Shown here in pieces: positions 24,634 through 48,749 of a DNA stretch of 64,000 bases. The stretch covers positions 27,734,476 through 27,798,475 of the forward strand of contig NC_041007.1 of the NCBI RefSeq assembly GCF_004193775.1, in the 5' to 3' direction. How positions within the stretch are numbered: position 1 is the stretch's first letter; each line of letters begins with the position of its first letter. A program made the position numbers and the translations under genes. Below the pieces are notes generated by a model. The model was given only the letters and a program-made list of their open reading frames with translations, was not told the DNA's origin and did no database searches. This DNA comes from Glycine soja (lineage: Eukaryota; Streptophyta; Magnoliopsida; Fabales; Fabaceae).

Positions 24634-25845
24634 TGTAGAAGAAAGATATTTTGATGTTTTGATGATGCCAAAGGATCAAGTGCTTCTCAAGTTTTATTCA
24701 AGACAAGAATCTAAGAATCCAAGAAAATCAAGATATATGATCAAGTTGATCTCTAGAATCTTAGGAAGAAGGTTCCAAATTGAAAAAGCAAAAGGTTTGG
24801 CCAAAGAATTTTATCTAAATCATGCTAAATTGAGATTTACTCTCTGGTAATTGATTACCAGAGGATGTAATCGATTACCAGTGGCCAATATGCTTTCCAA
24901 AAAGGTTTTAAAAGGTTTTAAATATTTTAGAAAGCATGTAGTCGATTACACATGGCTTGTAATCGATTACCAGAGGTTTGGAACGTTTTAAAACAACTAT
25001 AAGAAATTTGAATTTAAATTTCAAAGTTGTGTAATCGATTATAGTAAGGTTGTATTCGATTACCAGTGTTTAAATATTCAAATTTCAAATGAGAAAAGTC
25101 ATAACTCTTCAGAAGTAATTGTGTAATCAATTACACCATTATTGTAATCGATTACCAGTGAGGATTTTTGAATATAACTCCTAACAGTCACATATTTTCA
25201 AATGTTTTTGAACGGCCATCAAAGGCCTATATATAAGTGACTTGGGATACGAAAATTCTTGAGAGTTTTTATTGCCCAAAAAGTTTTATCCTCTCAAAAG
25301 ATTAAGAGAGTTTTTCTGAACTAAAATGTCTTATTCTCTCAAAAAGGATTCTTTGGTCAAACACTTTTATATTCAATAAGGAATCTTGATTGATCTTCAA
25401 TTGTAATATCTTTCTCTTTCAAGAGAGATTTCTTCTTCTCTTCTTCTTAATTCTGAAAAGGGATTAAGAGACCGAGGGTCTCTTGTTGTAAAGGATTCCC
25501 GAACACAAGGGAAGGGTTGTCCCTGTGTGGTTCAGACTTTGTAAAAGGAGTTTTACAAAGAGAGTGGAAAATCTCAAGTGGGTTTCTTGAGGACTGGACG
25601 TAGGCACGGGAAGTGGCCGAACCAGTATAAATCAAGTTTGCATTTCTCTCTTCCCTTAAACTTCCTTTATTTATTGTTATTTATCTTTTGCTTTAAAGAA
25701 GTTTATTTTGAATTGTCTTTTAAGTAATTCATGTTAAGGGTGCATTGTTAATCCTAAAAGAGAGAGTGAAATTTTAATTGGGGAATAGTCTTTGTATCTT
25801 AATTCAACCCCCCTTCTTAAGATATTTGAGGCCACTTGTCTAACA
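24634..25845 (+). repeat. 5' LTR of element C (1212 bp)
   Basis: Very similar to the 3' LTR. U3 carries eight copies of a TGTAATCGATTACCA-type palindromic motif as four pairs beginning near 24845, 24937, 25029 and 25122, a period of about 92 bp. A TATA box (TATATATAAG) lies at 25228-25237. The transcribed part has strong hairpins: AAGAGACC/GGTCTCTT (25466-25484) and CTTTGTAAAA/TTTTACAAAG (25537-25560). Confidence 0.95.
25228..25237 (+). promoter_or_regulatory. TATA box of element C 5' LTR
   Basis: TATATATAAG lies about 70 bp after the last ATCGATTAC motif. The same box is in the 3' LTR near 29732. Confidence 0.6.
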
Positions 25846-25847
25846 AG

Positions 25848-25859
25848 TGGTATCAGAGC
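25848..25859 (+). other. Primer-binding site of element C (tRNA-iMet)
   Basis: TGGTATCAGAGC, two bases after the LTR end; matches the complement of initiator tRNA-Met exactly. Confidence 0.92.
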
Positions 25860-25898
25860 AGGATTCTTGTATAAAGTTTAAAAACTTCAAGAATAGAT

Positions 25899-26726
25899 AT
25901 GGCCTCATCCAACTTTCCATTTCCTGTGGGAAATTCTATTAATAGGCCTCTTATATTCAATGGTAAGGGTTATCACTATTGGAAAACCCGAATGCAGATC
26001 CTTATTGAAGCCATAGATTTAAATATATGGGAAGCCATTGAAGTTGGTCCCTTTATTCCAACAAAGGTAGTGGGAAATGCAACTATAGAAAAACCAAGAG
26101 AAGAATGGAATGATGATGAAAGAAGAAAGGTTCAATACAATTTAAAGGCCAAAAATATAATCACTTCTGCATTAGGCATGGAAGAATATTTTAGAGTCTC
26201 AAATTGTAAAAATGCAAAAGAAATGTGGGATATATTGCAAGTAACCTATGAAGGCACAACTGATGTCAAGAGATCTAGAATAAACACTCTCACACATGAA
26301 TATGAATTGTTCAAAATGTTTCAATATGAGACCATAGAAGACATGCAGAAAAGATTTACTCATATAGTTAATCATCTTGCATCATTGGGAAAAATATTTC
26401 CTAATGAAGATCTTATTAACAAAGTGTTGAGATGTTTAAGCAGGCAATGTCAACCAAAAGTAACAGCAATTGCAGAATCAAGAGATCTCACTAATATGTC
26501 TCTTGCCACTCTCTTTGGAAAACTTCAGGAACATGAAATGGAACTTATGAGACTCCATCAACATAAAGAGAATGATATAAAGAGAAAAGGAATAGCACTC
26601 AGAGCCTCATCATCTTTTATTCAAGAAGAAAGTGACAAAGAGGACTTGACTGAAATAGAAGAAGATGATGATGATTTCAGATTCTTTGTGAAAAGGTTCA
26701 ATAAATTTTTGAGAAACAAGAAATAA
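25899..26726 (+). CDS. Copia Gag (SIRE type), open reading frame
   Basis: A 275-residue open frame starting 39 bases after the primer-binding site: MASSNFPFPVGNSINRPLIF, then FNGKGYHYWKTRMQILIEAI (the copia Gag N-terminal DUF4219-like motif with conserved Y-x-x-W), AKEMWDILQVTYEGTTDVKR and FTHIVNHLASLGKIFPNEDL (UBN2-like capsid). It ends in an acidic stretch and stops before a zinc knuckle, which in related proteins follows shortly. The stop (TAA at 26724) may therefore be a truncation. It is the most intact Gag in the window. Confidence 0.85.
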   Translation: MASSNFPFPVGNSINRPLIFNGKGYHYWKTRMQILIEAIDLNIWEAIEVGPFIPTKVVGNATIEKPREEWNDDERRKVQYNLKAKNIITSALGMEEYFRVSNCKNAKEMWDILQVTYEGTTDVKRSRINTLTHEYELFKMFQYETIEDMQKRFTHIVNHLASLGKIFPNEDLINKVLRCLSRQCQPKVTAIAESRDLTNMSLATLFGKLQEHEMELMRLHQHKENDIKRKGIALRASSSFIQEESDKEDLTEIEEDDDDFRFFVKRFNKFLRNKK

Positions 26727-27030
26727 AAGGGAATCAAACATCAATACAAAGAAGAATGGAAAAATCCGACAAGAGGAATCTCAAAGAAAAGAAAGAAAGA
26801 AAGCATAAATCACTTGGGAAGATAATGACATAAATTCTTCAAGTGATTCAGAAAAATAAAATCATAAATTTGGGTTTCATGTTGAAAGACTATGAAAACG
26901 GAGAAGAGCAAAGTTGATACATTGATAGCAATTTCTCCAAACACATGGCGGGAGATGCATTAGAGTTTATTCATATTTCTCCCAAAGATAGTAAATATGT
27001 GATCTATGGAGACAACAAACAAAGGTCACT
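26727..27030 (+). pseudogene. Element C gag-pol remnant: protease/GAG-pre-integrase scrap
   Basis: After lysine-rich, frameshifted Gag tail, the segment at about 26925-27025 reads SNFSKHMAGDALEFIHISPK and VIYGDNK, matching the copia signature around D-S-G-C-S-x-H-M-T-G-D. The catalytic D-S-G is altered. Sequence homology to pol stops here, marking the left edge of the pol deletion. Confidence 0.75.
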
Positions 27031-27660
27031 TGTCTTTGATTAATTACTTTTGATTATTTTTTGCCTATGATTGTTAACTCTTGATTGAATTTTGATGCTT
27101 GTTTTCTGCTTAAATGTTGATTGTCTTTGATGATTGTTTTTGAATGAGTTTTTGATTGTGTTTGAGATTGATGTTTGATTGTGTTTAATTGTAAGTATTT
27201 AATTGTGTTTTTGATTGATGTGTTATTGTGTTTTGATTTTGCTTGATTAATATTGTATGCTTGTTAGTATAATTGATTGATAGAGTTAGATGATGTTCTT
27301 AGATAATAGAAATAGGTAATTTTTAGGAGAAAAGCCTTGTTTGGTGTTCTGATAATCGATTGTCATTACGTGTAATCGATACAAGAACAGGTAGCCTATA
27401 ATCGATTACCAGTAGGCAGTATGGTCTTGTAATTGATTACGAAGCCCTATAATTGATTACCATTCGTCCTCCACTATAAATAACATGTGTTTCAAACGTT
27501 GCAGCCACGAAACACATGATTGTGGCACCCTTTTTTTTCAAAATTAAAATCCTCATATCTTCTTCGTTTCTTAACCAAATCACATCCCACAAAGCCTAAA
27601 CTTCATCATTTTCAATCCTCTTTTGATTCCATTGATTGAAATCTGCAAAAACTTCCTCAA
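27031..27660 (+). promoter_or_regulatory. Spacer before env-like ORF with promoter-like motif cluster and TATA box
   Basis: A T/G-rich stretch (27031-27300) is followed by five ATCGATTAC-type motifs (about 27352, 27371, 27398, 27430, 27450) and a TATA box CTATAAATA at 27473-27481, roughly 190 bp before the ATG at 27661. The motif-then-TATA order copies that of the LTR U3, suggesting a separate promoter for the env-like ORF. Presence is seen; promoter function is inferred. Confidence 0.5.
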
Positions 27661-28797
27661 ATGGCTGAATCGATGAAAAAGCGAAAGGTCTCTTCCACCA
27701 CCACCGCCGCTACTGGCCATCGACGCCACAGACCATCTGAAGCACCCACAACACCAGTTCCTCCTTTCTTGTCATCTCCATGATCATCTACTCTATTTTC
27801 TTCATATTATCAATGTCTACGGTACTTTCTTCAATTTTCTACTAGAATCATATTAGACCCTAAGTACCTAGACATAGCTTTCTTTGATGATGAGACATTT
27901 GACTGTTATCAAGTATTTCAAAACTCTGGCTTAGTTGATTTTATGTCTTTAAAGTTGCCTCATTATCTTGAACTAGTTAGAGTCTTCTACAATAACTTAA
28001 GAATTCAGGATAGTACACTTTATTCTGAGGTGCATGGTATTCCTCTTGTCATTGATTAATCTTTATTTTTCTAATTGACTAAATTACCCAGTCAAGGTGT
28101 TCCTTTTGAAGGCACTCTTGTTGATGGTTGGAAGTTCGATTATTCGAGTCATGATGCTCGTCGTATGGTCTGTAATGACCAGGCTGATATGACCAGCAGA
28201 TTGCTTGTCAGGTCATTAACCTTTGATTGCCGCATCATGCACTACATCATTGTTAGAATTTTGTTACCCTGTTCGTCTAATCTTGCTCAAGCCTCTGAGG
28301 AGGACTTGATTTTGATGTGGGATTTTCTTATTGATTGTCAGATTGACTGGGCCCATTTGGTTAAGGATCGTATGCATAAGGCATTACAGACCAATGCAGC
28401 TTTTACATATCCTCAGTTAGTCACTCTTTTTCTTCGTCACTTTCAAATTCCTCTCGATGATGAACCTTTTGTTCAAGTCAAGAGATCTTTTGCCATTGGT
28501 GCTGGAGCGGTAACTTCTTTTGGGTACCGTAAGGATATTGATGGACAGTGGATTAGGAAACAAGATTTACCACCACCAATTCCTGATGAGCGTACTTCGT
28601 CTCCTCTGCCACAGAGAGATGCTTCCTCTACTCTTATGCATGAAGTCCTTTCTGAACTACGTGGCCTTCGAGCGTTCGTAGGTGACCGTTTGGATGCCAT
28701 GGATGCTCATTTTGAAGGCATGGATACATGGATTACTCAACTTGAAGATGACATAGGTTTCATTTGTCGTTGCTTCAATCCACCGGCTGCCCCATAG
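27661..28797 (+). pseudogene. Env-like accessory ORF of SIRE-type element, broken
   Basis: ATG at 27661 gives MAESMKKRKVSSTTTAATGH, a basic, S/T-rich start, with stops near 27781 and 28057. The conserved middle includes YLELVRVFYNNLRIQ and then an open frame from 28075 (240 residues): RSLTFDCRIMHYIIVRILLP, YPQLVTLFLRHFQIPLDDEP, and a C-terminal coiled-coil-like end (LHEVLSELRGLRAFVGDRLD). SIRE elements carry an 'env-like' ORF after pol; I see no signal peptide or obvious transmembrane helix here, so envelope function is doubtful. Its layout resembles the plant transposon protein-like ORF at 37614. Confidence 0.7.
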
Positions 28798-29150
28798 TTC
28801 TTTATAGTAGTTCTTTATTTCAGCCATGTATTTGGCTTTTATTGTTTTAGTTATGGTTAACTTGCACTTTTATTACTATTTCTAGACTTTAAATTGATTG
28901 GTTAAGACTGTGTGGTCTGCTTCAGTTTATGACTGACTTTGTTTACTATTGATTGATTTCCTTAATTCTTTTCCTTATACGTTCTTGGTTTTTTTATGTT
29001 GCCAAAGGGGGAGAGAACATGGGTTAGAAATCATTAACTTAGGTGTAAATTCCAAAAGATAGGGGGAATAAGGGTTGTGTGTACACGCTATCAACTTGTA
29101 TATAGTTTATCTTGATTTTAGGATATTGTCATCATCAAAAAGTGGGAGAT
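28798..29150 (+). other. Element C 3' untranslated spacer and polypurine tract
   Basis: No coding sequence. It ends in AAAAAGTGGGAGAT just before the 3' LTR; AAGTGGGAGA is the likely polypurine tract priming plus-strand DNA. Confidence 0.75.
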
Positions 29151-30353
29151 TGTAGAAGCAATATATTTTGATGTTTTGATGATGCCAAAGGATCAAGTGC
29201 TTCACAAGTTTTATTCAAGACAAGAATCCAAGAATCCAAGAAAATCAAGATATATGATCAACTTGATCTCTAGAATCTTAGGAAGAAGGTTCCAAATTGA
29301 AAAAGGAAAAGGTTTGGCCAAAGAATTTTATCTAAATCATTTAAATTGAGATTTACTCTCTGGTAATCGATTACCAGAGGATGTAATTGATTACCAGTGG
29401 CCAATAAGCCTTCCAAAAAGGTTTTAAATATTTTAGAAAGCATGTAATCGATTACACATGGCTTGTAATCGATTACCAGAGGTTTGGAATGTTTTAAAAC
29501 AGCCATAAGAAATTTGAATTTAAATTTCAAAGTTGTGTAATCGATTACAGTAAGTTGGTAATCGATTACCAGTGTTTAAATATTCAAATTTCAAATGAGA
29601 AAAGTCACAACTCTTCAAAAGTAACTGTGTAATCGATTACACCATTATTGTAATCGATTACCAGTGAGGCTTTTCGAATATAACTCCTAACAGTCACATA
29701 TTTTCAAATGTTTTTGAACGGCCATCAAAGGCCTATATATAAGTGAGTTGGGATACGAAAATTCTTGAGGGTTTTTATTGCCCAAAAAGTCTTATCCGCT
29801 CAAAAGATTAAGAGAGTTTTTCTGAACTAAAATGTCTTATCCTCTCAAAAAGGATTCTTTGGTCAAACACTTTTATATTCAATAAGGAATCTTGATTGAT
29901 CTTCAATTGTAATATCTTTCTCTTTCAAGAGAGATTTCTTCTTCTCTTCTTCTTACTTCTGAAAAGGGATTAAGAGACCGAGGGTCTCTTGTAGTAAAGG
30001 ATTCCTGAACACAAGGGAAGGGTTGTCCCTATGTGGTTCAGACTTTGTAAAAAGAGTTTTACAAAGAGAGTGGAAAATCACATGTGGGTTGCTTGAGGAT
30101 TGGACGTAGGCACGGGAAGTGGCCGAACCAGTATAAATCAAGTTTGCATTTCTCTCTTCCCTTAAACTTCCTTTATTTATTGTTATTTATCTTTTTCTTT
30201 AAAGAAGTTTATTTTGAATTGTCTTTTGAGTAATTCATGTTAAAGGTGCATTGTTAATCCAAAAAAAAAAGAGTGAAATTTTAATTGGGGAATAGTCTTT
30301 GTATCTTAATTCAACCCCCCCTTCTTAAGATATTTGAGGCCACTTGTCTAACA
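29151..30353 (+). repeat. 3' LTR of element C (1203 bp)
   Basis: Differs from the 5' LTR by scattered substitutions and a few small indels. Several ATCGATTAC motifs that are mutated in the 5' copy are canonical here. Hairpins AAGAGACC/GGTCTCTT (29972-29990) and CTTTGTAAAA/TTTTACAAAG (30043-30066) keep their stems. Confidence 0.95.
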
Positions 30354-30879: not shown

Positions 30880-32600
30880 AATGATTTGTCGTAGATCTGA
30901 TGTTGAGTCCTGTAAGAGTAACGATACCGAGGACTCGGACGTCGACTTTGAGTGTCCGATAAGTCAAGCGAAAGGGGAAGAGAATGAAGATTGGGGGCTT
31001 CCCCCGGACTTGAGAGGAATGGTGGGGCAAGAAGAAAAGGAAGTGAAGCCACACCGAGAGGAAACAAAAATTGTGAACTTAGGTGCTAACAGAGAAAGAA
31101 AAGAGGTCAAGGTCGACACTTGCATGTCCATAAATGTCTGAGATGAATTGGTGACTCTGTTGCGAGACTACCAAGAAATCTTTGCTTGGTCCTACCAGGA
31201 TATGCCTAGTTTGAGCTCGGACATCATTTAGCACAAACTACCTTTGAATCCCGAGTGTTCCTGGTAAAGCAAAAACTGAGGAGAATGAAACACGAGATGT
31301 CCCTGAAAATAAAGGAGGAAGTGAGGAAGCAATTTGACATTGGTTCCTTGGTTGTGGCTCGGTACCCAGAATGGGTCGCCAATATCCCTTAAAAGGATGG
31401 GAAGGTGCAAATGTGCGTGGACTATCGGGATTTAAACCGAGCCAGTCCAAAGGATAACTTTCCTTTACTGCACATTGATGTTCTCATAGATAACACGACC
31501 AATTTTGCCCTATTTTCTTTCATGGATGGATTTTCGGGCTATAATCAGATAAAGATGGCACCGGAGGATATGGAAAAGACAACCTTCATCACTCTATGGG
31601 GAACTTTATGCTACAAGGTGATGTCCTTTGGGCTCAAGAACGTTGGGGCAACATACCAGCGGGCCATGGTGGCGTTATTCCACGACATGATGCATAAAGA
31701 GATCGAGGTCTACATGGATGACATGATCGCTAAATTGAGGACTAAGGAGGAACACCTTATTAGTTTACGAAAGTTGTTCGAGCGACTGCGTAAATACATG
31801 TTAAGGTTGAATCCCACAAAGTGTACTTTTGGGGTTAAATCAGGAAAATTGCTCGGCTTTGTCGTTAGTTAGAAAGGAATAAAGGTAGATCCAGACAAGG
31901 TAAAGGCAATCCTCGAAATGCCTGAGCCACGCACCGAGAAGCAGGTCCGAGGTTTCCTGGGAAGGTTGAACTACATAGTGAGATTCATATCACAACTGAC
32001 CTCCACTTGCAAGCCTCTTTTCCAATTATTGCGTAAGAATCAGTCCATCCAATGGGATGATGATTGTCAAGTGGCATTTGAAAGGATTAAACAGTGTCTC
32101 ATGAATCCTCCTATGCTCATACCACTGGTGCCCGAAAGATCTTTTATCCTATACATGACTGTATTAGATGAGTCAATGGGGTGTGTGCTGGGACAGCATG
32201 ATGAGTCCGAAAAAAGGGAACGAACCGTCTATTACTTGAGCAAGAAGTTCACGGCATGCGAGATGAACTACTCTTTGCTAGAGAGGACATGTTGTTCCTT
32301 GGTATGGGTAGCTCACCGTCTGAGGCAGTATATGCTGAATTACACTACTTGGTTGGTGCCCAAAATGGATCTCGTCAAGTACATCTTCGAAAAGCCCTCT
32401 CTCACTGGACGGATAGCCCGGTGGCAGGTTCTGCTATCAGAATTTGATATTGTCTATGTCACTCAAAAGGTAATAAAGGGAAGTGCCTTGGCTGATTACC
32501 TAGCTCAACAGCCCATCAATGATTATCAGCCTATGCATCCAGAATTCCCAAATGAGGACATCATGACCTTGTTTGAGGAGGAAGTAAAAGATGAAGACAG
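30880..32600 (+). pseudogene. Ogre reverse transcriptase and RNase H, broken
   Basis: The acidic linker (SNDTEDSDVDFECPISQAKG) precedes RT. RT motifs in order: QMCVDYRDLNRASPKDNFPL, FSFMDGFSGYNQIKMAPEDM, MSFGLKNVGATYQRAMVALF, and VYMDDMIAKLRTKEEHL with an intact YMDD. The thumb has PEPRTEKQVRGFLGRLNYIV. The first RNase H reads LDESMGCVLGQHDESEKRER and YYLSKKFTACEMNYSLLERT. A few in-frame stops (near 31229, 31265, 31389 and 31870) separate long open stretches, so decay is modest. Confidence 0.9.
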
Positions 32601-33066
32601 GGACAAGTGGATCGTGTGGTTTGACGGCGCGTCTAATACACTATGCCATGGAATTGGGGTAGTATTGATTTCTCTGTACAAACAATATATACCTTTCACG
32701 GCTAGGTTGTGCTTCGACTGCACAAACAACATAGCAGAGTACGAGGTGTGTGCCCTGGGATCCGAGCAGCAATCGACTTTAGGGTCAAGTTACTCAAGGT
32801 ATACAAGGACTCGACATTGGTAATTCATCAGTTGAAAGGTGAATGGGAGACCAGGGACCACAAATTGGTACCTTACCAAGCTTATATCAGGAAGTTGATG
32901 GAATTCTTTGATGACATATCTTTTCATCACATTCTAAGAGAGGAAAATCAGATGGCTGACGCCCTTGCCACTCTAGCGTCCATGTTCAAAGTAAGCCCGC
33001 ACGGAGATTTGTCGTACATCAAATTTAGATGCCGTAGTGAGCCTGCACATTGCAATTTGATAGAAG
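32601..33066 (+). pseudogene. Ogre second (archaeal-type) RNase H
   Basis: KWIVWFDGASNTLCHGIGVV carries the first catalytic D, FDCTNNIAEYEVCALG the E, YKDSTLVIHQLKGEW the next D, and LREENQMADALATLASM the last D. This additional RNase H after the retroviral one is a hallmark of Tat/Ogre elements. A one-base frameshift near 32755 splits it into two open frames. All four acidic residues are still present. Confidence 0.88.
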
Positions 33067-34334
33067 AAGAGGAGGATGGTAAGCCTTGGAACTTCGATAT
33101 CAAACGATACATCGAAGACAAGGAATACCCGCCTGAGGCCTCTGACAACGACAAAAGGACATTACGAAGGTTGGCGGCCGGTTTCCTCCTTAGTGGAAAT
33201 ATCTTGTACAAGAGAAACCATGACATGGTGTTGCTTCGGTGTGTCGATGCAAGAGAGGCCGAACAAATGCTAATAGAGGTGCACGAGGGGTCCTTTGGTA
33301 TGCATGCCAATGGACATGCCATAGCCCAAAAGATTCTAAGAGCGGGGTATTACTGGCTCACTATGGAGAGCAATTGTTACGTTCATGTGAGGAAATGCCA
33401 TAAGTGTCAGACCTTCACTGATAATGTTAATGCTTCACCTGTACCATTGAACATCTTGGCAGCACCTTGGCCATTCTCTATGTGGGGCATAGACGTGATT
33501 GGGGCCATCAAACCCAAGGCTTCCAACAGGCATCGCTTCATCTTAGTCGCCATTGATTACTTCAGAAAGTGGGTGGAAGCAGCTTCATATGCTAGCGTGA
33601 CTAGGAATGTGGTGATCAGATTCATTAAGAAAGAGATAATATGCATATATGGGTTGCCCAGGAAAATCATTATTGATAATGCCACCAATTTAAACAACAA
33701 GATGATGAAGGAAATGTGTGAGGATTTCAAAATCCAACACCATAATTTCACGCCTTATCGGCCAAAGATGAATGCGGCAGTTGAGGCTGCCAATAAAAAT
33801 ATCAAGAAAATCATTCAGAAGATGATCGTGTCATACAAGGATTGGCACAAGATGCTCCCCTTTTGCATTACATGGTTATCAAACTTTTGTGCGCACATCT
33901 ACTGGGGCAACCCCTTTTTCTTTGGTGTACGGGGTGGAAGTTGTGCTCCCGTTTGAGGTAAAGGTTCCTTCTTTAAGAATCCTAGCAGAGTCAGGTTGGA
34001 AGAATCAGAGTGGACCCAAACACGCTTTGATCAGTTAAATCTTATCGAAGGTAAGAGATTGGACGCCATGAGCCATGGGCGACTATACCAAAGCAGAGTG
34101 AAAAATGTTTTTGACAAAAGGGTACGCCCGCGTAAGTTCAGCGAGGGGAACATTGGTCTAAAGAAAGTGTCACAGGCTCAAAAGGATCACAGAAGGAAAT
34201 GGGCCCCGAACTATGAGGGGTCGTTTGTTGTGAAGAAAGCTTTCTTGGGAGGAGTGTTGTTGCTTATGAATATGGATGACGAAGAGCTGCCTTAGCCTGT
34301 GAATTCCGACATCATCAAGCAGTATTACGCGTGA
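33067..34334 (+). pseudogene. Ogre integrase (no chromodomain), broken
   Basis: Zinc-binding N-terminus: HEGSFGMHANGHAIAQKIL and VRKCHKCQTF (H-H-C-C). Catalytic core: WGIDVIGAIKPKASNRHRFI with first D, GLPRKIIIDNATNLNN with second D, and [20 protein letters not shown] with E, so the D-D-E triad is preserved. A frameshift near 33930 moves the C-terminus (LYQSRVKNVFDKRVRPRKFS) to another frame; one stop precedes the last residues SDIIKQYYA and TGA at 34332. Absence of a chromodomain fits Tat. Confidence 0.88.
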
Positions 34335-35608
34335 TGCTTGGGGGCAATTCAAAGACTCAATATTTGGACTTCCTCAAGGACTCATTAGGATCTCCAAGTC
34401 TTAAAATTTTTGTAAACCATAATCACAACATTAATAAATACAGATTAATTATTTGCATCTCTCCTTCCAGTGTTGTGTCCTTTACATTTTTATTGTCTTT
34501 AAGAACATACAATCTTGTTCTTGCTCACTCATTTTCGAGCCATTTTGCACATATAGCAGGGGTACCGTAAACGTTAAATAAAATTGAACTCGGCAATGCC
34601 CGTTTAATTATTTGCATTTTTACATTCGATCATAAACATGCATGCATCTGCATCTTATCGTTAAGGGATCCTGCAAATCAGAAAACAAATGAAGAGTCAT
34701 TTTGGGTGATGGTTAGCACCACACCAACTTGGGTAAGTCTAGGGGCAATTGGAAAGGTGATAAAAGTATCTTGTAGTATTTTTTTCACATTTTACATGAT
34801 AACACTTTCTTTGTCAAAGCATTAGGGCAGGTACTAACAGGTGCTAGGCCCATGATCAGATCGATCACCACCCAGCGTCCGACTAAAGACGTTAAAGAAG
34901 CGCTCCTAGGTGGCAACCTAGTATCTCTAACTTTGCTCTTTAATTTCATGTTCGTTTTCTTGAATTATCGCATGAGTTCGCCTAAGCATATACATAATTA
35001 ATAAGGTTTAAAAGGGAAATATATATAACAAAATCTTTGCAAAAAAAAATAAAAAATTTCAACTCGCCTAGGCGAGCGTGCTCTGACGAAAAAGATAAAA
35101 AGGAGGGGGGGGGTGAAGCCAAATTTCACCCATCTTCCCCCATTTTCTTCCAAACTCACCAAAGGCTCCCCAAGACCCACGGGAACCACCATTTTTTGCA
35201 CCTTCAAGCTTTTGTTGTGCATTTGTCTCAATTATTTTCTCTTTCCATTCATCTCACTCAACTAAGTGCCATCTCCATCTATTTTTACTTCTTCCTTGTG
35301 GTATTTGGTGCCTTATTTGTTGTTTTCTTGGCAATATTTGTGAGATAAATTATGTGTAAATCCATGATCTGAATGCTTTGGTTAAGGGCTTCAATGGATG
35401 GCTCTAGGCCTATCCTTGATTCTGTTGTAAATTTGCATGTCATATTGCTCCTTATCCCTTATTTTTACATGCTTTAACATATGCCCACCAATTGTTTGAT
35501 AAAATGCCACAATAACTATTCCATGTGTTGTTTTGAAATTTGAATGAGTAATGATCTTTATGCATGTCCAGCCATCATTTTAGATGTATCATCAAGTTAG
35601 GTTGATAG
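34335..35608 (+). other. Ogre 3' region before solo LTR
   Basis: Non-coding by eye. It contains a perfect 14-bp palindrome CTCGCCTAGGCGAG (35063-35076), the same kind of motif that clusters in the element's LTR, followed by a C-rich leader-like stretch (about 35120-35250) and a possible splice donor near 35339. Confidence 0.6.
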
Positions 35609-37263
35609 TATTGGATCGAGTGACCTCAGAATAATTAAGAAGGGGGGGTTGAATTTTATTCCTAAACCTTTACTAATTAAAAATTACTCTTCTAAGGCTT
35701 TTAATTATTTTGTTAAGAGAATATGGAGTTGAAGAGAAACTTAACAGAAAGTAAAAGCAGAAATTAAATGCACAGCGGAAAGTAAAAGAGTAGGGAAGAA
35801 GGAAACAAACACACAAGAGTTTTTATACTGGTTCAGCAACAACCCGTGCCTACATCCAATCCCCAAGCGACCTGCAGTCCTTGAGATTTCTTTCAACCTT
35901 GTAAAAATCCATTTACAAGCAAAGATCCACAAGGGATGTACCCTCCCTTATTCTCTTTGAACCTAGTGGATGTACCCTCCACTAGAACTGATCCACAAGA
36001 GATGTACCCTCTCTTGTTCTCAGTCAAACCCAAGTAGATGTACCCTCTACTTGTACCACAAAGGATGTACCCTCCAATGTGTTAAGACAAAGATCTCAGG
36101 CTGTTAAACCTTTGATACTTTGTGAATGGGGATAGAAAAGTATTCTCAGGCGGTTAGTCCTTTGAACACTTTTGTATTAGGGAAAGGGAAGAATCAAAAG
36201 AATTCTCAGACTGTGTCGTTTTGAATTCTTTGACAAGGGAGAAGGGAGACACAAAAGAATTCAGGCGGTTAGTCCTTTGTTCTTTTGGAAAAGGGAGAAG
36301 AGAGACACAAAAAGAATTCAGGCGGTTAGTCCTTGGTGAATTCTTTTTGGCAAAGGGAGAAGGGAATGAAACAGATGAATATCACAAGTTTTCAAGGTTT
36401 AGAAAAACCAGAAAACTTTGGAAAGCTTTTGGCAAAAGGAAGAAGAAGAAGAAGTTAAAAGAGACTCAGAAATCAATGTGGAAAACTTGCTTGTGTAAAG
36501 AATGAATTGGAAAAGATTGATTGATAGAATGAATGAATTGATTGAAAAATGCAAAACAAAACCTTGCTTTTATAGACTCTTCGTATCTGGTTAAGAAGAC
36601 CATTTAGAAGAGTTATAACTTTTAGAAAAACTTAAAACCAATTTGAAAAAGTCAAAAACCTTTTGAAGAGTTTAATCTTTTGATTTATTCAGAAACAGTC
36701 ACTAGTAATCGATTACCAAATTAGTGTAATTGATTACACAAAGCTTTTGTGTGAAAGGATGTGACTCTTCACATTTGAATTTGAATTTCAACATTCAAAG
36801 GCACTGGTAATCGATTACCAAAACATTGTAATCGATTACAGCTTTTTGAAAATAATTGGAACGTTGTAAATTCAATTTGAAAACTTTTTCAAAACAATTT
36901 TGCTACTGGTAATCGATTACCAGAGAGTAAAAACTCTTTGGTAAAAGGTTTTGTCAAAAACTCATGTGCTATTCAAAGTTTTGAAAAAAAATTTAATACT
37001 TATCTTGATTGAGTCTTCTCTTCATTCTTGAATCTTGAGTCTTGAATCTTGATCTTGATTCTTGAAATCTTGAACCTTGAATCTTGATTCTTGTCTCTAG
37101 ACTTTCTTCTTGAGTCTTGAATTCTTCTTGATTCTTATCTTGAACTCTTGAATTGTTCTTGATTGATCTTTGAGCTTTTTGTCATCACCTTTGTCATCAT
37201 CTTTTGTTATCATCAAAACACATTTGAATCACCTTTGATTCACCATGAAGCTTTGCTTCTACA
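35609..37263 (-). mobile_element. Solo LTR, copia/SIRE-like, minus strand (1655 bp)
   Basis: On the minus strand it starts TGTAGAAGCAAAGCTTCATG and ends CCAATA (CCAACA with one change). Perfect duplication gatag (35604-35608, 37264-37268). U3 holds TGGTAATCGATTACCA-type motifs (about 36710-36920), with a TATA box at 36567-36574. The transcribed part contains the hairpin train at 35898-36349. The start sequence and motif type resemble element C but the body differs, so it is a related, separate family. Confidence 0.85.
35898..36349 (-). repeat. Train of eleven hairpins with constant loops and variable stems
   Basis: Plus-strand coordinates. H0 CTTGTAAA/TTTACAAG (35898-35919). Four hairpins with loop ATGTACCCT: AAGGG/CCCTT (35931-35949), CTAGTGG/CCACTAG (35963-35985), ACAAGAG/CTCTTGT (35995-36017), CAAGTAG/CTACTTG (36031-36053); a fifth is partly decayed (36057-36081). 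Five with a loop of type CAGGCGGTTAGTCC: 36087-36123, 36136-36173, 36197-36231, 36252-36287 (CAAAAGAA/TTCTTTTG) and 36308-36349 (CAAAAAGAATTC/GAATTCTTTTTG, 12 bp). Stems differ from one another yet pair, downstream of the LTR TATA box and so in the expected transcript. Confidence 0.85.
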
Positions 37264-37613
37264 GATAGATTAAATGCCAAGAGCATGAACTAAGCTTGGA
37301 AATCTAGACATTGCTTTCAATGTAAACGCATGAGTTACATGAATGCTTAAAATTCTTTGAGTAGAATTAGTCTAATTGTTGGTTAAACATGCTACACTAT
37401 GATGGGCACATTGCACCTAAATTGTTGTAGAATGTTAATTTCTTTCAAAATAATACGCACTGAGTTGTAATTTGTTTTATTAGTTGCACAGTAACACATG
37501 CAATTAGCAAAAACCACACAAAGTTGATTGACTTCTTGCTTGCTTAGTATAACTAAAATAATGGTTACATATTTCATGCAAACTACCTTTTTATGGATGT
37601 GTCATTGTAGGCA
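37264..37613 (+). other. Ogre 3' region after solo LTR, non-coding
   Basis: Continues the sequence at 35608 once the solo LTR is removed. It ends in TTGTAG, a plausible splice acceptor, four bases before the ATG at 37614. No ORF recognised. Confidence 0.55.
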
Positions 37614-38888: not shown

Positions 38889-40333
38889 GGAGTTTGAGCC
38901 TTTTGACCAGGACCTTTTAAATTTGTGAACTTTTCTTTATTTTATTTATCGCTTTCAGTATTTTGTTATGTTTTCGTTGTGATGTTTAGTTTGAAACACA
39001 AAAAAAACTAAACAAAAAAACTTATGCATGTTTCCTTTTTTCATGCACCTTTTGTTCCTTTGATAAGTGTAGTCTCGGATTACAATTTTTCATGTGTTTC
39101 AAATCTTCCCTAAAAAAATAATCACCAGTTTTCTTCAGAAAGTTTACGGATCAAAACACAGGTTTTTTTTAAAAAAAAGAAATGTGTACCTAGAGGGTGA
39201 AAACAATGAAAGACTTTCTCGAATGTCAAAATGGGCTTGGATGTTTTGTATGACTTGATAAAAGAGCAATTGTTGAAATACTGACTTGGCCTGAATGTGG
39301 AAACAGGCCCTAAGCCTTAGTGATTGCTTAACCATAAATTTTATGTTGAGTGTCTGCACAGGTATGTTTTGCGATTGATTTTGCATGGATTTCTAATTAT
39401 CATAATATGTGATTCATGGGGATGATCTGGGCATTCCTTTCTTTCTAAGCCATTGGCCAAACAACAGTCCCAATATACATTATTTTCTACCATTTGCAAG
39501 CCTTTTGAGCCAAACATTGATTTTTTCTAGAACCCTGACCTAGGATGGAAGTTTCCAACCTTACCCTGGGATCAGAAAGAAGGGAGATCTTCCAAGGGGG
39601 ATTTCTAGCATCTTTTGGTTAGTGATGTTCATCAAAACAAAAAAAAAACAAAAAGAACAAAAATGACAAAGAAAGAAAGAAAAAAAAGGAAAAAAAATCA
39701 ATCAATTAAAGATAGAAAAGAGCGAAGGAAAATAGAAAAGGAAAACAGGCTCTTTGGACCAAACATTGGCTAAACCATGTACAGAGTTGTCGAAAGGAGG
39801 AAAAAGGAGGGGGCAATAGTAACTTGGTTAAGACATGAGGGGATAGGAAGTGATCGCCTATTTAAGTTACTAACCAAATCTTTGGACCTACTCTCCTGTT
39901 CCACACAAAACAAAAAGGAAGAGAAAGGGGAAAGGCCAGAGCAACCAAAACCAATTTCCTACAAAGTTCGACCTTAGAAAGTCCTATTGGTCCATGATGA
40001 TTATGCATATTATCCTTGATTTGATGGGAAATGACCTGCAAAATCAATTTATGACATATCTATGATTTGGAATTAAGACGAAAACACTTTCCTATGTGAA
40101 GCTTTATACACCTTGTGCAATTTCCTCTGTTCGGTTGGACCCAGTGTTTCTTCTAATGTTCTTTTAGAAACAAAATACAAATGTCTTAAATCTCATTTTT
40201 GGTTATGAGAAATTCTATCTGCATGCTTTCATTTCCCATTACTCACATTGTTTTTTGAAAAATAATGTGTGTTCTTCTTATCAATTTGGGGGTTTGTTTC
40301 TTTACCAAGCATGTTCACGTTTTAGTGAAAGAT
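38889..40333 (+). other. Ogre 3' untranslated region
   Basis: No conserved ORF. It has A-rich simple stretches (39640-39700). Fits the long 3' non-coding region of Ogre elements. Confidence 0.6.
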
Positions 40334-40643
40334 TTCAAGACTTCAATCTCTTCTGTCTTTACATTTCAAGACTTCGATATCTTCTATCTTCACATTTCAA
40401 GACTTCAATGTCTTCGGTCTTTACATTTCAAGACTTCAATGTCTTCTGTCTTTACATTTCAAGACTTCATTGTCTTCTGTCTTTACATTTCAAGATTTCA
40501 ATGTCTTCTGTCTTTACATTTCAAGACTTCAATGTCTTCTGTCTTTACATTTCAAGACTTCAATGTCTTTTGTCTTTACATTTTGAGACTTCAATGTCTT
40601 TTATCTTTACATTTCAAGACTACAATGTCTTTTGTCTTTACAT
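40334..40643 (+). repeat. 31-bp minisatellite, ten units, in Ogre 3' region
   Basis: Ten consecutive 31-base units of the form TTCAAGACTTCAATGTCTTC followed by TGTCTTTACAT, with substitutions but no indels in 310 bp. Because 31 is not a multiple of three, all three frames read the same peptide cyclically, giving long false ORFs. Each unit can form a small hairpin (AAGAC/GTCTT). Confidence 0.95.
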
Positions 40644-40849
40644 TCCCAAAGACTTCAATGTGCCCTATTTTGTTGTGCAAGACTACAACATCTTTTGTTT
40701 AGTACTTTTGATACTTCATCCGCTTACTCTTTTTTTTAAAAGTTTCACTTCTTTTGTTTTCGCTAGTTGCCGATCGGATAACAAGATCGCTTGGATGAAA
40801 TTAGTGTCCTTATCTTTACTTACCTTTTCATTTTCAATAAAAGATAAGT

Positions 40850-47643: not shown

Positions 47644-48749
47644 ATGACTAGAGGCAATCCAGGTGACTTACAACCCTTTGATCCTGAAATAGATAGAACA
47701 TTTCATAGATTAGCTAGGCATAGTGTGCATCTTGATTACCCTGAACATTTTGTACCTTTTGAGCATCCTGAACATTCTGTTATTGGTGAGTCTGAGCATT
47801 CTGTGGTTGGTAATTTAGAACATTCTGGTTTTGAGCATTCTGATTTTGAACATTCTGAAAATATGGCTCAACCTCCACCTCGTGAGAGGACTCTAAGGGA
47901 AATGGCTGCACCTGATTTCACTTATGAAAGCTTGTGCATTCAATACCCTAATGAGGATGTCCCATATGTTCTTAAAATTGGATTGATCCACTTGTTGCCT
48001 ATGTTTCATGGTCTTGCAAGTGAAGACCCTCATAACCATATGAAAGAATTCCATATTGTCTACTCCACCATGAAACCTCCAGATGTCCAAGAAGATCACA
48101 TCTTTCTGAAGGCCTTTCCTCATTCTTTGGAGGGAGTGGCAAAAGATTGGCTATACTACCTTGCTCCAAGGTCCATTACGAGTTGGGATGACCTAAAGAG
48201 AGTTTTCTTAGAGAAATTTTTCCCTACTTCTAGGACCACTGCAATCAGAAAGGATATTTCAAGCATCAAGCAACTCACTGGAGAAAGTTTATATGAATAC
48301 TGGGAAAGATTCAAAAAATTATGCGCCAGCTGCCCTCACCACCAGATTTCTGAGCAACTTCTTCTCCAATATTTTTATGAAGGACTTAGTAACATGGAGA
48401 GAAGTATGATTGATGCTGCCAGTGGTGGAGCCCTTGGAGACATGACCCCTGCTGAAGCCAGGAATTTAATTGAGAAGATGGCTTCCAACTCCCAACAATT
48501 TAGTGCTAGAAATGATGCTATTGTCATTAAAGGAGTGCATGAGGTAGCCACGAATTCATCTTCATCATCTGAAACTAAGAAGCTTGATGGAAAACTAGAT
48601 GTTTTGGTTAACCTGGTAACCCAGCTGGCCTTGAATCAGAAATCTATACCTGTCGTAAGAGTCTGTGGTTTATGCTCCTCTGCCGACCACCATACAGACC
48701 TTTACCCTTCTATGCAGCAATCTGGAGCAATTGAGCAGCCTGAATGCTC
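47644..48749 (+). CDS. Athila-type Gag, open but 3' truncated
   Basis: Open for 404 codons; the first about 369 are Gag. MTRGNPGDLQPFDPEIDRTF is followed by a short acidic repeat of E-H-S units (HPEHSVIGESEHSVVGNLEH), then the capsid core: IGLIHLLPMFHGLASEDPHN, AFPHSLEGVAKDWLYYLAPR, SWDDLKRVFLEKFFPTSRTT, ISSIKQLTGESLYEYWERFK, LCASCPHHQISEQLLLQYFY. It ends in the start of the zinc-knuckle region (VCGLCSSADHHTDLYP). After about 48749 the frame runs into a family-A LTR fragment, so the last residues are not Gag. No stops inside the Gag part, unusual in this window. Confidence 0.85.

What the first reader, a model, noticed from the sequence alone, without database searches (positions are those of the whole stretch)
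35898..36349. Train of eleven hairpins with constant loops and covarying stems in an LTR leader
Within 450 bp there are eleven consecutive inverted repeats. One group of five shares the loop ATGTACCCT, but the arms differ: AAGGG/CCCTT, CTAGTGG/CCACTAG, ACAAGAG/CTCTTGT, CAAGTAG/CTACTTG, and one partly decayed. A second group of five shares a loop like CAGGCGGTTAGTCC with other arms, up to a perfect 12-bp stem. Arms of different sequence that still pair around the same loop are what selection on RNA (or single-stranded DNA) structure produces, or what a repeated template-switch mechanism that copies an arm inverted would produce. The train lies downstream of the LTR TATA box, so it would be in the R/U5 leader RNA on the minus strand. 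Possible roles are packaging, dimerisation, blocking siRNA targeting, or a miRNA/phasiRNA source. I know of no description of it.
Basis: partly seen in the sequence, partly recalled or inferred. Interest (0 to 1): 0.88.

Follow-up and report, generated by a model that had tools for sequence, protein, structure and literature searches.

The report
Hairpin array in a soybean retrotransposon leader
A jumping-gene remnant in a soybean-type genome carries a run of eleven small hairpins; in part of the run the stems have changed in matched pairs while the loop stayed the same, as expected if the element's RNA must fold, perhaps for packaging its genome.

Summary
The hairpins are real and far above chance: 8 non-overlapping perfect stems of at least 7 bp in 452 bp, against a shuffle mean of 0.8 and a maximum of 3 in 300. 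They lie in a solo Ty1-copia-type LTR (37263-35609, minus strand, target duplication CTATC), between a TATA box (36574) and a second, conserved TATA-like site (35834). Downstream of the first, ATG is depleted in element sense: 2 against a shuffle mean of 8.7, 0 of 1000 as low; U3 is not depleted. So the train probably sits in a scanned 5' leader.

Five hairpins share the loop GGGTACA. Their arms differ by paired changes (5 of 9 pairs; 0 of 500 shuffles reach the covariation score). Translated relatives (the named ones are Glycine) repeat one swap: L/R 43, Q/W 35, L/W 0 of 86 read. The second hairpin class shows no clear compensation.

Best reading: an RNA-structured leader extended by tandem duplication under pairing selection; packaging or dimerisation is a guess. 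Template switching remains a live rival. Hairpin-rich copia LTRs are known; I found no description of constant loops with covarying arms. New variant of a known kind.

The parts
35609..37263 (-). Solo LTR (1655 bp), TGTAGAAG...CCAATA
   Evidence: Start matches the start of the related LTRs; exact 5-bp target duplication CTATC at 37264-37268 and 35604-35608; no near-identical second copy in the window
36700..36930 (.). U3 with repeats of the palindrome-like TGGTAATCGATTACCA
   Evidence: folding z of 36700-37000 is -6.2 in element sense and -6.9 antisense
36567..36574 (-). TATA box 1 (TATAAAAG)
   Evidence: ATG is depleted downstream of it and not upstream
36308..36349 (-). Hairpin B1, 13-bp perfect stem
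36252..36287 (-). Hairpin B2, 8 bp
36197..36231 (-). Hairpin B3, 9 bp, different loop; not formed in the minimum-energy fold of the whole leader
   Evidence: fold
36132..36177 (-). Hairpin B4, imperfect, one G.U pair in element sense
36087..36123 (-). Hairpin B5, 6 + 3 bp with a 1-nt bulge
   Evidence: Minimum-energy structure
36057..36081 (-). Hairpin E (loop GGGTACA), 7 of 9 pairs, U.U/U.U internal loop
36031..36053 (-). Hairpin D (loop GGGTACA), CAAGTAGA/TCTACTTG
35995..36017 (-). Hairpin C (loop GGGTACA), ACAAGAGA/TCTCTTGT
35963..35985 (-). Hairpin B (loop GGGTACA), CTAGTGGA/TCCACTAG
35929..35951 (-). Hairpin A (loop GGGTACA), ATAAGGGA/TCCCTTGT with one U.G pair
35898..35919 (-). Hairpin H0, 8 bp; lies opposite CTTTGTAAAAGGAGTTTTACAAAG of the related LTR
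   Evidence: alignment
35924..36056 (-). Tandem duplication of about 66 bp: units A+B and units C+D
   Evidence: Tandem Repeats Finder; block alignment
35822..35834 (-). Conserved TATA-like site GAACCAGTATAAA (TATA 2)
   Evidence: Also at 25619 and 30125 in the related LTRs
35635..35664 (-). AATAAA (35655-35660), then CCCCCCCTTCTT, near the LTR end; poly(A) role inferred
   Evidence: C-rich end shared with the related LTRs
24634..30353 (+). Related element used for comparison: LTRs 24634-25845 and 29151-30353, target duplication ACGGG, PBS TGGTATCAGAGCA, copia-type gag
   Evidence: (ends read by eye)

Best explanation
This is the structured 5' leader (mostly R) of a Glycine Ty1-copia-type retrotransposon, seen here in a dead solo LTR. 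Stem-loop modules multiplied by tandem duplication (units A+B and C+D). While the element was replicating, the arms diverged under selection to keep pairing, and the loop GGGUACA was kept. Shown: the hairpins, the solo LTR, the ATG depletion downstream of TATA 1, the paired arm differences among class A units and one paired swap among family copies. Inferred: that TATA 1 starts the transcript and that RNA pairing is the selected trait. More weakly inferred: that the train acts as a repeated handle on the genomic RNA, bound through the G-rich loop by Gag or pairing loop-to-loop through its GUAC palindrome, so that only RNA started at TATA 1 is packaged and reverse-transcribed. This follows the split of RNA pools reported for barley BARE.
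For: Hairpin excess over shuffles. Five class A units: 88.9% of cells paired against 71.2% shuffled, 10 cells changed on both sides against 4.2, covariation score 0.622 against 0.252, each reached by 0 of 500 shuffles; slid registers score 0.217 or less. Between the duplicated blocks, A/C differ at 3 and B/D at 4 arm sites yet keep 8 of 8 standard pairs each; random placement does this in about 2% and 0.8% of trials. Family copies read through their translations: unit B readable in 86 of 98 proteins (0 of the 120, which are in another frame): L/R 43, Q/W 35, Q/R 2, L/W 0, others 6. 166 motif occurrences in 110 of 311 proteins allow 5.62 of 6 pairs against 4.76 shuffled, 0 of 500; their 29 distinct combinations 5.17 against 4.31, 0 of 500. 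Hairpin H0 and its counterpart in the related LTR differ by a matched C-G/U-A swap in an ungapped alignment (by eye). Non-Watson-Crick pairs in element sense in 10 of the 11 hairpins (B5 left out): 3 G.U, 0 A.C, 7 other, beside 83 Watson-Crick. ATG 2 against a mean of 8.7, 0 of 1000 shuffles, while U3 has 12. 110-nt windows under -40 kcal/mol: 8 of 309 in element sense, 0 of 309 antisense. BARE: TATA1 RNA is packaged, TATA2 RNA translated (PMC3735527, passages).
Against: The paired changes rest on few independent events, and the Q/W state of unit B resembles the neighbouring unit of the same subfamily, so copying between units could have made it. Two of five covariation measures are ordinary: pairs with a change on both sides (5; 82 of 500 shuffles) and further pair types (8; 213 of 500). 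Class B gives no clear compensation within the family. In the related LTR (25440-25630) z is -1.75 in element sense and -4.6 antisense; 0 of 221 windows fall below -40 kcal/mol; and its minimum-energy leader fold forms the H0 counterpart but not the inverted repeats lying opposite units A and C (by eye). U3 has equally strong hairpin potential. The second TATA-like site may be the real promoter; the leader start at 36545 used for the counts is assumed. The ATG depletion is weaker in the related LTRs (2 and 4 ATG; 26 and 148 of 1000 shuffles). No RNA, packaging or expression data.
Confidence: 0.55

Rival explanations
1. Mutational origin: template switching during replication or reverse transcription copies one arm inverted and so creates and repairs perfect stems around a fixed loop, without selection on RNA.
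For: PMC8794818 (abstract and passages) argues that template switching can create stems and fix pairing while retaining the loop. The unit B swap read as L/R against Q/W (U-A to A-U) has no G.U intermediate, so a single-step event is attractive.
Against: Unit E keeps its U.U mismatches in the family (18 of 166 occurrences by its translations) and unit A keeps a U.G pair here, so stems are not routinely repaired. The few imperfect pairs are G.U rather than A.C in element sense (3 against 0), too few to decide. It does not explain the ATG depletion.
Confidence: 0.25
2. DNA-level cis-regulatory palindromes: the train is upstream promoter DNA of TATA 2, and the repeats bind host factors, as proposed for clustered palindromes of Sirevirus LTRs.
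For: The conserved TATA-like site lies directly downstream; U3 of the same LTR has palindrome-like repeats; palindromic cis-regions of Copia LTRs are known (PMC10760457).
Against: A binding site would be expected to keep the arm sequence. Here the arms vary in pairs and the loop is kept, the reverse of the maize Copia consensus with constant arms and a free centre (CACCGGACNNNGTCCGGTG). The ATG depletion fits a transcribed, scanned leader.
Confidence: 0.15
3. The train is a host small-RNA source or a trap for silencing, like the hairpin regions of maize Copia LTRs. This can be true as a by-product beside the best explanation.
For: 8 of 309 windows of 110 nt in element sense fall below -40 kcal/mol, the energy cut-off used in PMC10760457; such regions carry more small RNAs in maize.
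Against: Perfect stems here are 6 to 13 bp, short for Dicer substrates (recalled); no Rfam match at gathering score in the LTR; no small-RNA data here. It gives no reason for covariation.
Confidence: 0.1
4. Chance plus tandem duplication of one palindromic unit.
For: The units are tandem relatives.
Against: Hairpin count 8 against 0.8 expected; seven arm substitutions between the duplicated blocks leave all 16 pairs standard.
Confidence: 0.05

Closest known systems
Palindrome clusters in maize Sirevirus (Ty1-copia) LTRs (Bousios et al. 2016, not held; seen only as described in PMC10760457)
   Same: Copia-type LTR, several hairpins clustered in the LTR, strong predicted folding
   Different: The maize Copia consensus given there has constant arms, and the region is called cis-regulatory; here the loop is constant, the arms covary, and the train is downstream of a TATA box in ATG-poor sequence
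Barley BARE LTR with two promoters (PMC3735527, passages)
   Same: Two TATA sites in one copia LTR
   Different: The word 'hairpin' occurs 0 times in its text; promoter use here is untested
Ty1 5' leader with kissing-loop dimerisation (PMC5454406, title and start of abstract in listings only)
   Same: Structured 5' end of a retrotransposon RNA, with proposed dimerisation and packaging roles
   Different: The part of the abstract that I saw mentions no train of same-loop hairpins; no sequence relation was tested
Hairpins made or kept by template switching (PMC8794818, abstract and passages)
   Same: Perfect stems around a retained loop with matched changes
   Different: Described for RNA genes; no word beginning with 'retro' occurs in the text

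Membership tests
Ty1-copia-type LTR (solo) | TG start and 5-bp target duplication | tested here: met
   TGTAGAAG start; CTATC on both sides. The end reads ATA where the related LTRs read ACA
Ty1-copia-type LTR (solo) | Same architecture as an LTR with a copia gag and PBS | tested here: met
   Related LTRs 24634-25845 and 29151-30353: PBS TGGTATCAGAGCA, gag PF14223 E 2.6e-25, shared start, TATA 2 and C-rich end
Ty1-copia-type LTR (solo) | Own copia reverse transcriptase | not testable with these tools
   Solo LTR without an internal region; own-genome search unanswered
Sirevirus-type palindrome cluster | Repeated palindrome with constant arms | tested here: not met
   In class A the arms vary and the loop is constant; the U3 repeat of the same LTR does keep its palindrome
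BARE-like dual promoter | Two TATA sites in the LTR | tested here: met
   36574 and 35834; same order in the related LTRs
BARE-like dual promoter | Separate RNA pools for packaging and translation | not testable with these tools
   Needs RNA and particle experiments
Selected RNA structure | Compensatory changes beyond chance in class A | tested here: met
   relatedness is not fully controlled, and 2 of 5 measures are ordinary
Selected RNA structure | Compensation in class B within the family | tested here: inconclusive
   107 B2 and 36 B3 readings look invariant or one-sided by eye; 12 B4 readings vary on both arms and were not scored; the B1 pattern failed
Selected RNA structure | Better folding in element sense than antisense | tested here: inconclusive
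   Focal class A -6.0 against -5.1, class B -4.2 against -3.0; related LTR -1.75 against -4.6
Retroviral-type packaging or dimerisation signal | Binding by Gag or dimer formation | not testable with these tools
   Only the G-rich, GUAC-containing loop is seen
Known Rfam family | Match at the gathering score | tested here: not met
   One match in the window, snoR71 at 48243-48348, not in the LTR

The most novel reading that the evidence does not exclude
A multivalent genome-recognition tag: repeated stem-loops with one loop (GGGUACA) sit between two promoters of the same LTR, so that only RNA from the upstream promoter carries the tag at its 5' end and is packaged. The number of hairpins grows by tandem duplication, and arms are free to change as long as they pair, which would also limit mispairing between neighbouring units.
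Probability: 0.2. Interest if true: 0.8.

Novelty: new variant of a known kind. Interest (0 to 1): 0.5.

Why it matters
How plant LTR retrotransposons mark the RNA they package is poorly known; [quoted passage not shown] A family with at least 186 translated relatives in public data, a natural duplication of the hairpin unit and arms that covary offers a ready natural mutagenesis data set. It is also a good test case for separating selection on RNA pairing from template-switch repair, because a constant loop, a paired transversion and a mismatched unit shared by relatives occur side by side.

Tried and rejected
Other copies as DNA: the TATA 2 motif found no LTR copy in viral contigs or genome contigs (exact pattern only), the gag found none in viral contigs, and the LTR found none in plasmids; the phages collection was not searched. 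The one viral hit, L001, did not look like an LTR on reading. The window's own genome could not be searched: the tool was busy each time. Text search for the motifs listed 13 papers, unrelated by title and not opened. Rfam gave nothing in the LTR at gathering score.

Considered and rejected: a decayed fifth class A unit (its state recurs in relatives); a partner LTR in the window (no near-identical copy; target duplication found); a protein-coding origin of the repeats (the listed hits are 'hypothetical proteins' or unnamed short ORFs, with one Pfam label in all, PF13966 on P0259). Those hits were used only as translated copies of the LTR, so silent changes are invisible. In one search my pattern for B1 matched one wrong protein and is not used. 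The class B alignment A3 was gapped and no pair count was made on it.

Dropped rows: one search ran on 218 proteins (98 and 120) and read unit B in 86, all; 12 did not fit the pattern. One search found 186 proteins, of which 120 were listed and used. One search used every exact EGTS or DVPS occurrence in all 311 proteins (166 in 110 proteins); occurrences with a changed loop were left out. The related-LTR stretches used differ by a few bases from the final LTR ends.

Full report
Observation. The region 35898-36349 contains nine non-overlapping perfect hairpins with stems of 6 to 13 bp, plus two imperfect ones, E with a U.U/U.U internal loop and B5 with a bulge. Dinucleotide shuffles give 0.8 hairpins of at least 7 bp on average and 3 at most in 300, against 8 seen; among 452-base windows at 100-base steps the richest of the 64 kb starts at 35901. 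The minimum-energy fold of the 926-nt leader forms ten of the eleven, not B3 (by eye). The longest stem is 13 bp, and the exact CAGGCGGTTAGTCC loop occurs three times, not five.

Where it lies. The train is in an LTR on the minus strand that starts TGTAGAAG at 37263 and ends at 35609. CTATC stands directly before and after it (37264-37268, 35604-35608), and no near-identical copy is in the window, so it is a solo LTR. In element sense the order is: U3 with TAATCGATTACCA repeats, TATAAAAG at 36574, a pyrimidine-rich stretch, the hairpin train, GGATGTAGGCACGGG and GAACCAGTATAAA (35834), then AATAAA and a C-rich end. A related element on the plus strand (LTRs 24634-25845 and 29151-30353, target duplication ACGGG, read) has the same order, a PBS TGGTATCAGAGCA and a copia gag (PF14223, E 2.6e-25). 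This places the focal LTR with Ty1-copia by architecture; its own polymerase is not available. The host is inferred to be Glycine because the named protein hits are Glycine soja and Glycine max.

Is the train in RNA? Taking the start at 36545 (assumed), ATG occurs twice in 937 nt in element sense, against a shuffle mean of 8.7 (0 of 1000 as low), while U3 has 12 in 689 nt with no depletion (826 of 1000 shuffles as low or lower). The related LTRs show the same direction with weaker statistics (2 and 4 ATG; 26 and 148 of 1000). This favours a scanned 5' leader starting at TATA 1. The conserved TATA-like site at 35834 leaves a second possibility: if that is the main promoter, the train belongs to U3 and is carried only at the 3' end of the RNA.

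Covariation within the LTR. The five class A units align without gaps around GGGTACA. In the nine-pair stem, 88.9% of cells pair (71.2% shuffled), 10 cells are changed on both sides (4.2) and the covariation score is 0.622 (0.252); none of 500 shuffles reaches these. Two other measures are ordinary: 5 pairs with changes on both sides (82 of 500) and 8 further pair types (213 of 500). Sliding the register gives scores of 0.217 or less. Units A+B and C+D are a tandem duplication of about 66 bp. A and C differ at 3 arm sites, B and D at 4, and all 16 pairs stay standard, one of them a U.G. Random placement of the same number of changes does this in about 2% (A/C) and 0.8% (B/D) of trials.

Covariation among copies. 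No DNA copies could be fetched, so I searched translations of the LTR against the protein collection. The hits are translated LTR copies, some named as hypothetical proteins of Glycine soja and Glycine max, most from short unnamed contigs: 98, 186 of which 120 were listed, and 93 for the related LTR. Unit B was readable in 86 of the 98 (and in 0 of the 120, which are in another frame): residues L and R 43 times, Q and W 35, Q/L 3, Q/R 2, L/S, Q/S and Q/Y one each, L/W never. L/R corresponds to the focal CTA..AGG. W has the single codon TGG, so Q/W implies a U-A to A-U swap in the stem. Over 166 occurrences of the motif in 110 of 311 proteins, codon choices allow 5.62 of 6 pairs on average against 4.76 after shuffling (0 of 500); for the 29 distinct combinations, 5.17 against 4.31 (0 of 500). 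These shuffles do not remove relatedness, and in many copies a neighbouring unit reads the same QV..STW as this form of unit B, so copying between units and only one or few events may lie behind it. In class B, 107 B2 and 36 B3 readings look invariant or changed on one side by eye; 12 B4 readings vary on both arms and were not scored.

Related LTR. Inverted repeats lie opposite units A and C and hairpin H0 in the alignment; H0 and its counterpart differ by a matched C-G/U-A swap. The minimum-energy fold of the related leader forms the H0 counterpart but not the other two, and 0 of 221 of its 110-nt windows fall below -40 kcal/mol.

Strand. In 10 of the 11 hairpins (B5 left out), imperfect pairs in element sense are 3 G.U, 0 A.C and 7 others, which would suit RNA of the element strand but is too few. 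Folding z-scores lean the same way for the focal train (class A -6.0 against -5.1; class B -4.2 against -3.0) but the other way for the related LTR (-1.75 against -4.6). Eight of 309 110-nt windows fall below -40 kcal/mol in element sense, none of 309 antisense.

Mechanism. The most likely reading is a structured leader under pairing selection, extended by tandem duplication. The function is inferred. By analogy with BARE, where RNA from the upstream promoter is packaged and RNA from the downstream one is translated (PMC3735527, passages), a hairpin train between two promoters would mark the replicating RNA. The loop GGGUACA offers exposed G residues and a GUAC palindrome; that retroviral Gag prefers exposed G in loops, and that palindromic loops can start dimers, is recalled general knowledge apart from the Ty1 paper (PMC5454406, title and start of abstract in the listings). 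The chief rival is template switching, which can make and repair stems around a retained loop (PMC8794818, abstract and passages). Unit E's mismatches, shared by relatives, and unit A's U.G pair speak mildly against routine repair.

Known and new. Hairpins concentrated in LTRs of Copia elements, and palindrome clusters in Sirevirus LTRs, are described in maize (PMC10760457, passages; Bousios et al. 2016 itself is not held). The consensus given there has constant arms. LTR models have linked residual conservation in long retroviral R regions to stem-loops (PMC3601003, passages). My searches of the held library listed no description of this family or of a same-loop hairpin train in a plant LTR, judged from titles and abstract starts; most subscription papers are outside it. 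I file it as a new variant of a known kind.

Noticed in passing
window 24634-30353: The related LTR element holds a copia gag (PF14223) at 25893-26726 but, further in, an ORF with a weak Transposase_32 match (28075-28797, below the curated cut-off) and no other open frame of 150 aa or more; it looks like a non-autonomous, chimeric element.
   Followed up: partly
window 25619, 30125 and 35834: A stretch around GTAGGCACGGG...GAACCAGTATAAA is conserved between two otherwise diverged LTR families and recurs in many of the 93 translated relatives (by eye); it may be a core promoter or a conserved RNA element.
   Followed up: partly
window 36700-36930, 24840-25160, 29360-29670: Repeats of TGGTAATCGATTACCA in U3 of both LTR families, strong palindromes on DNA.
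   Followed up: partly
window 48243-48348: Plant snoRNA snoR71 on the minus strand, above the Rfam gathering score.
   Followed up: no
window 40332-40661: Array of about 10.6 copies of a 31-bp unit, 91% matches, overlapping a 227-aa open frame.
   Followed up: no
window 31393-33956: Pieces of a reverse transcriptase, RNase H-like domain and integrase (PF00078, PF13456, PF17921, PF00665) in separate open frames; by domain order a broken Ty3-type polymerase.
   Followed up: no
protein collection: Annotated 'hypothetical proteins' of Glycine soja and Glycine max are translations of LTR leader sequence, so they are probably spurious gene models.
   Followed up: partly
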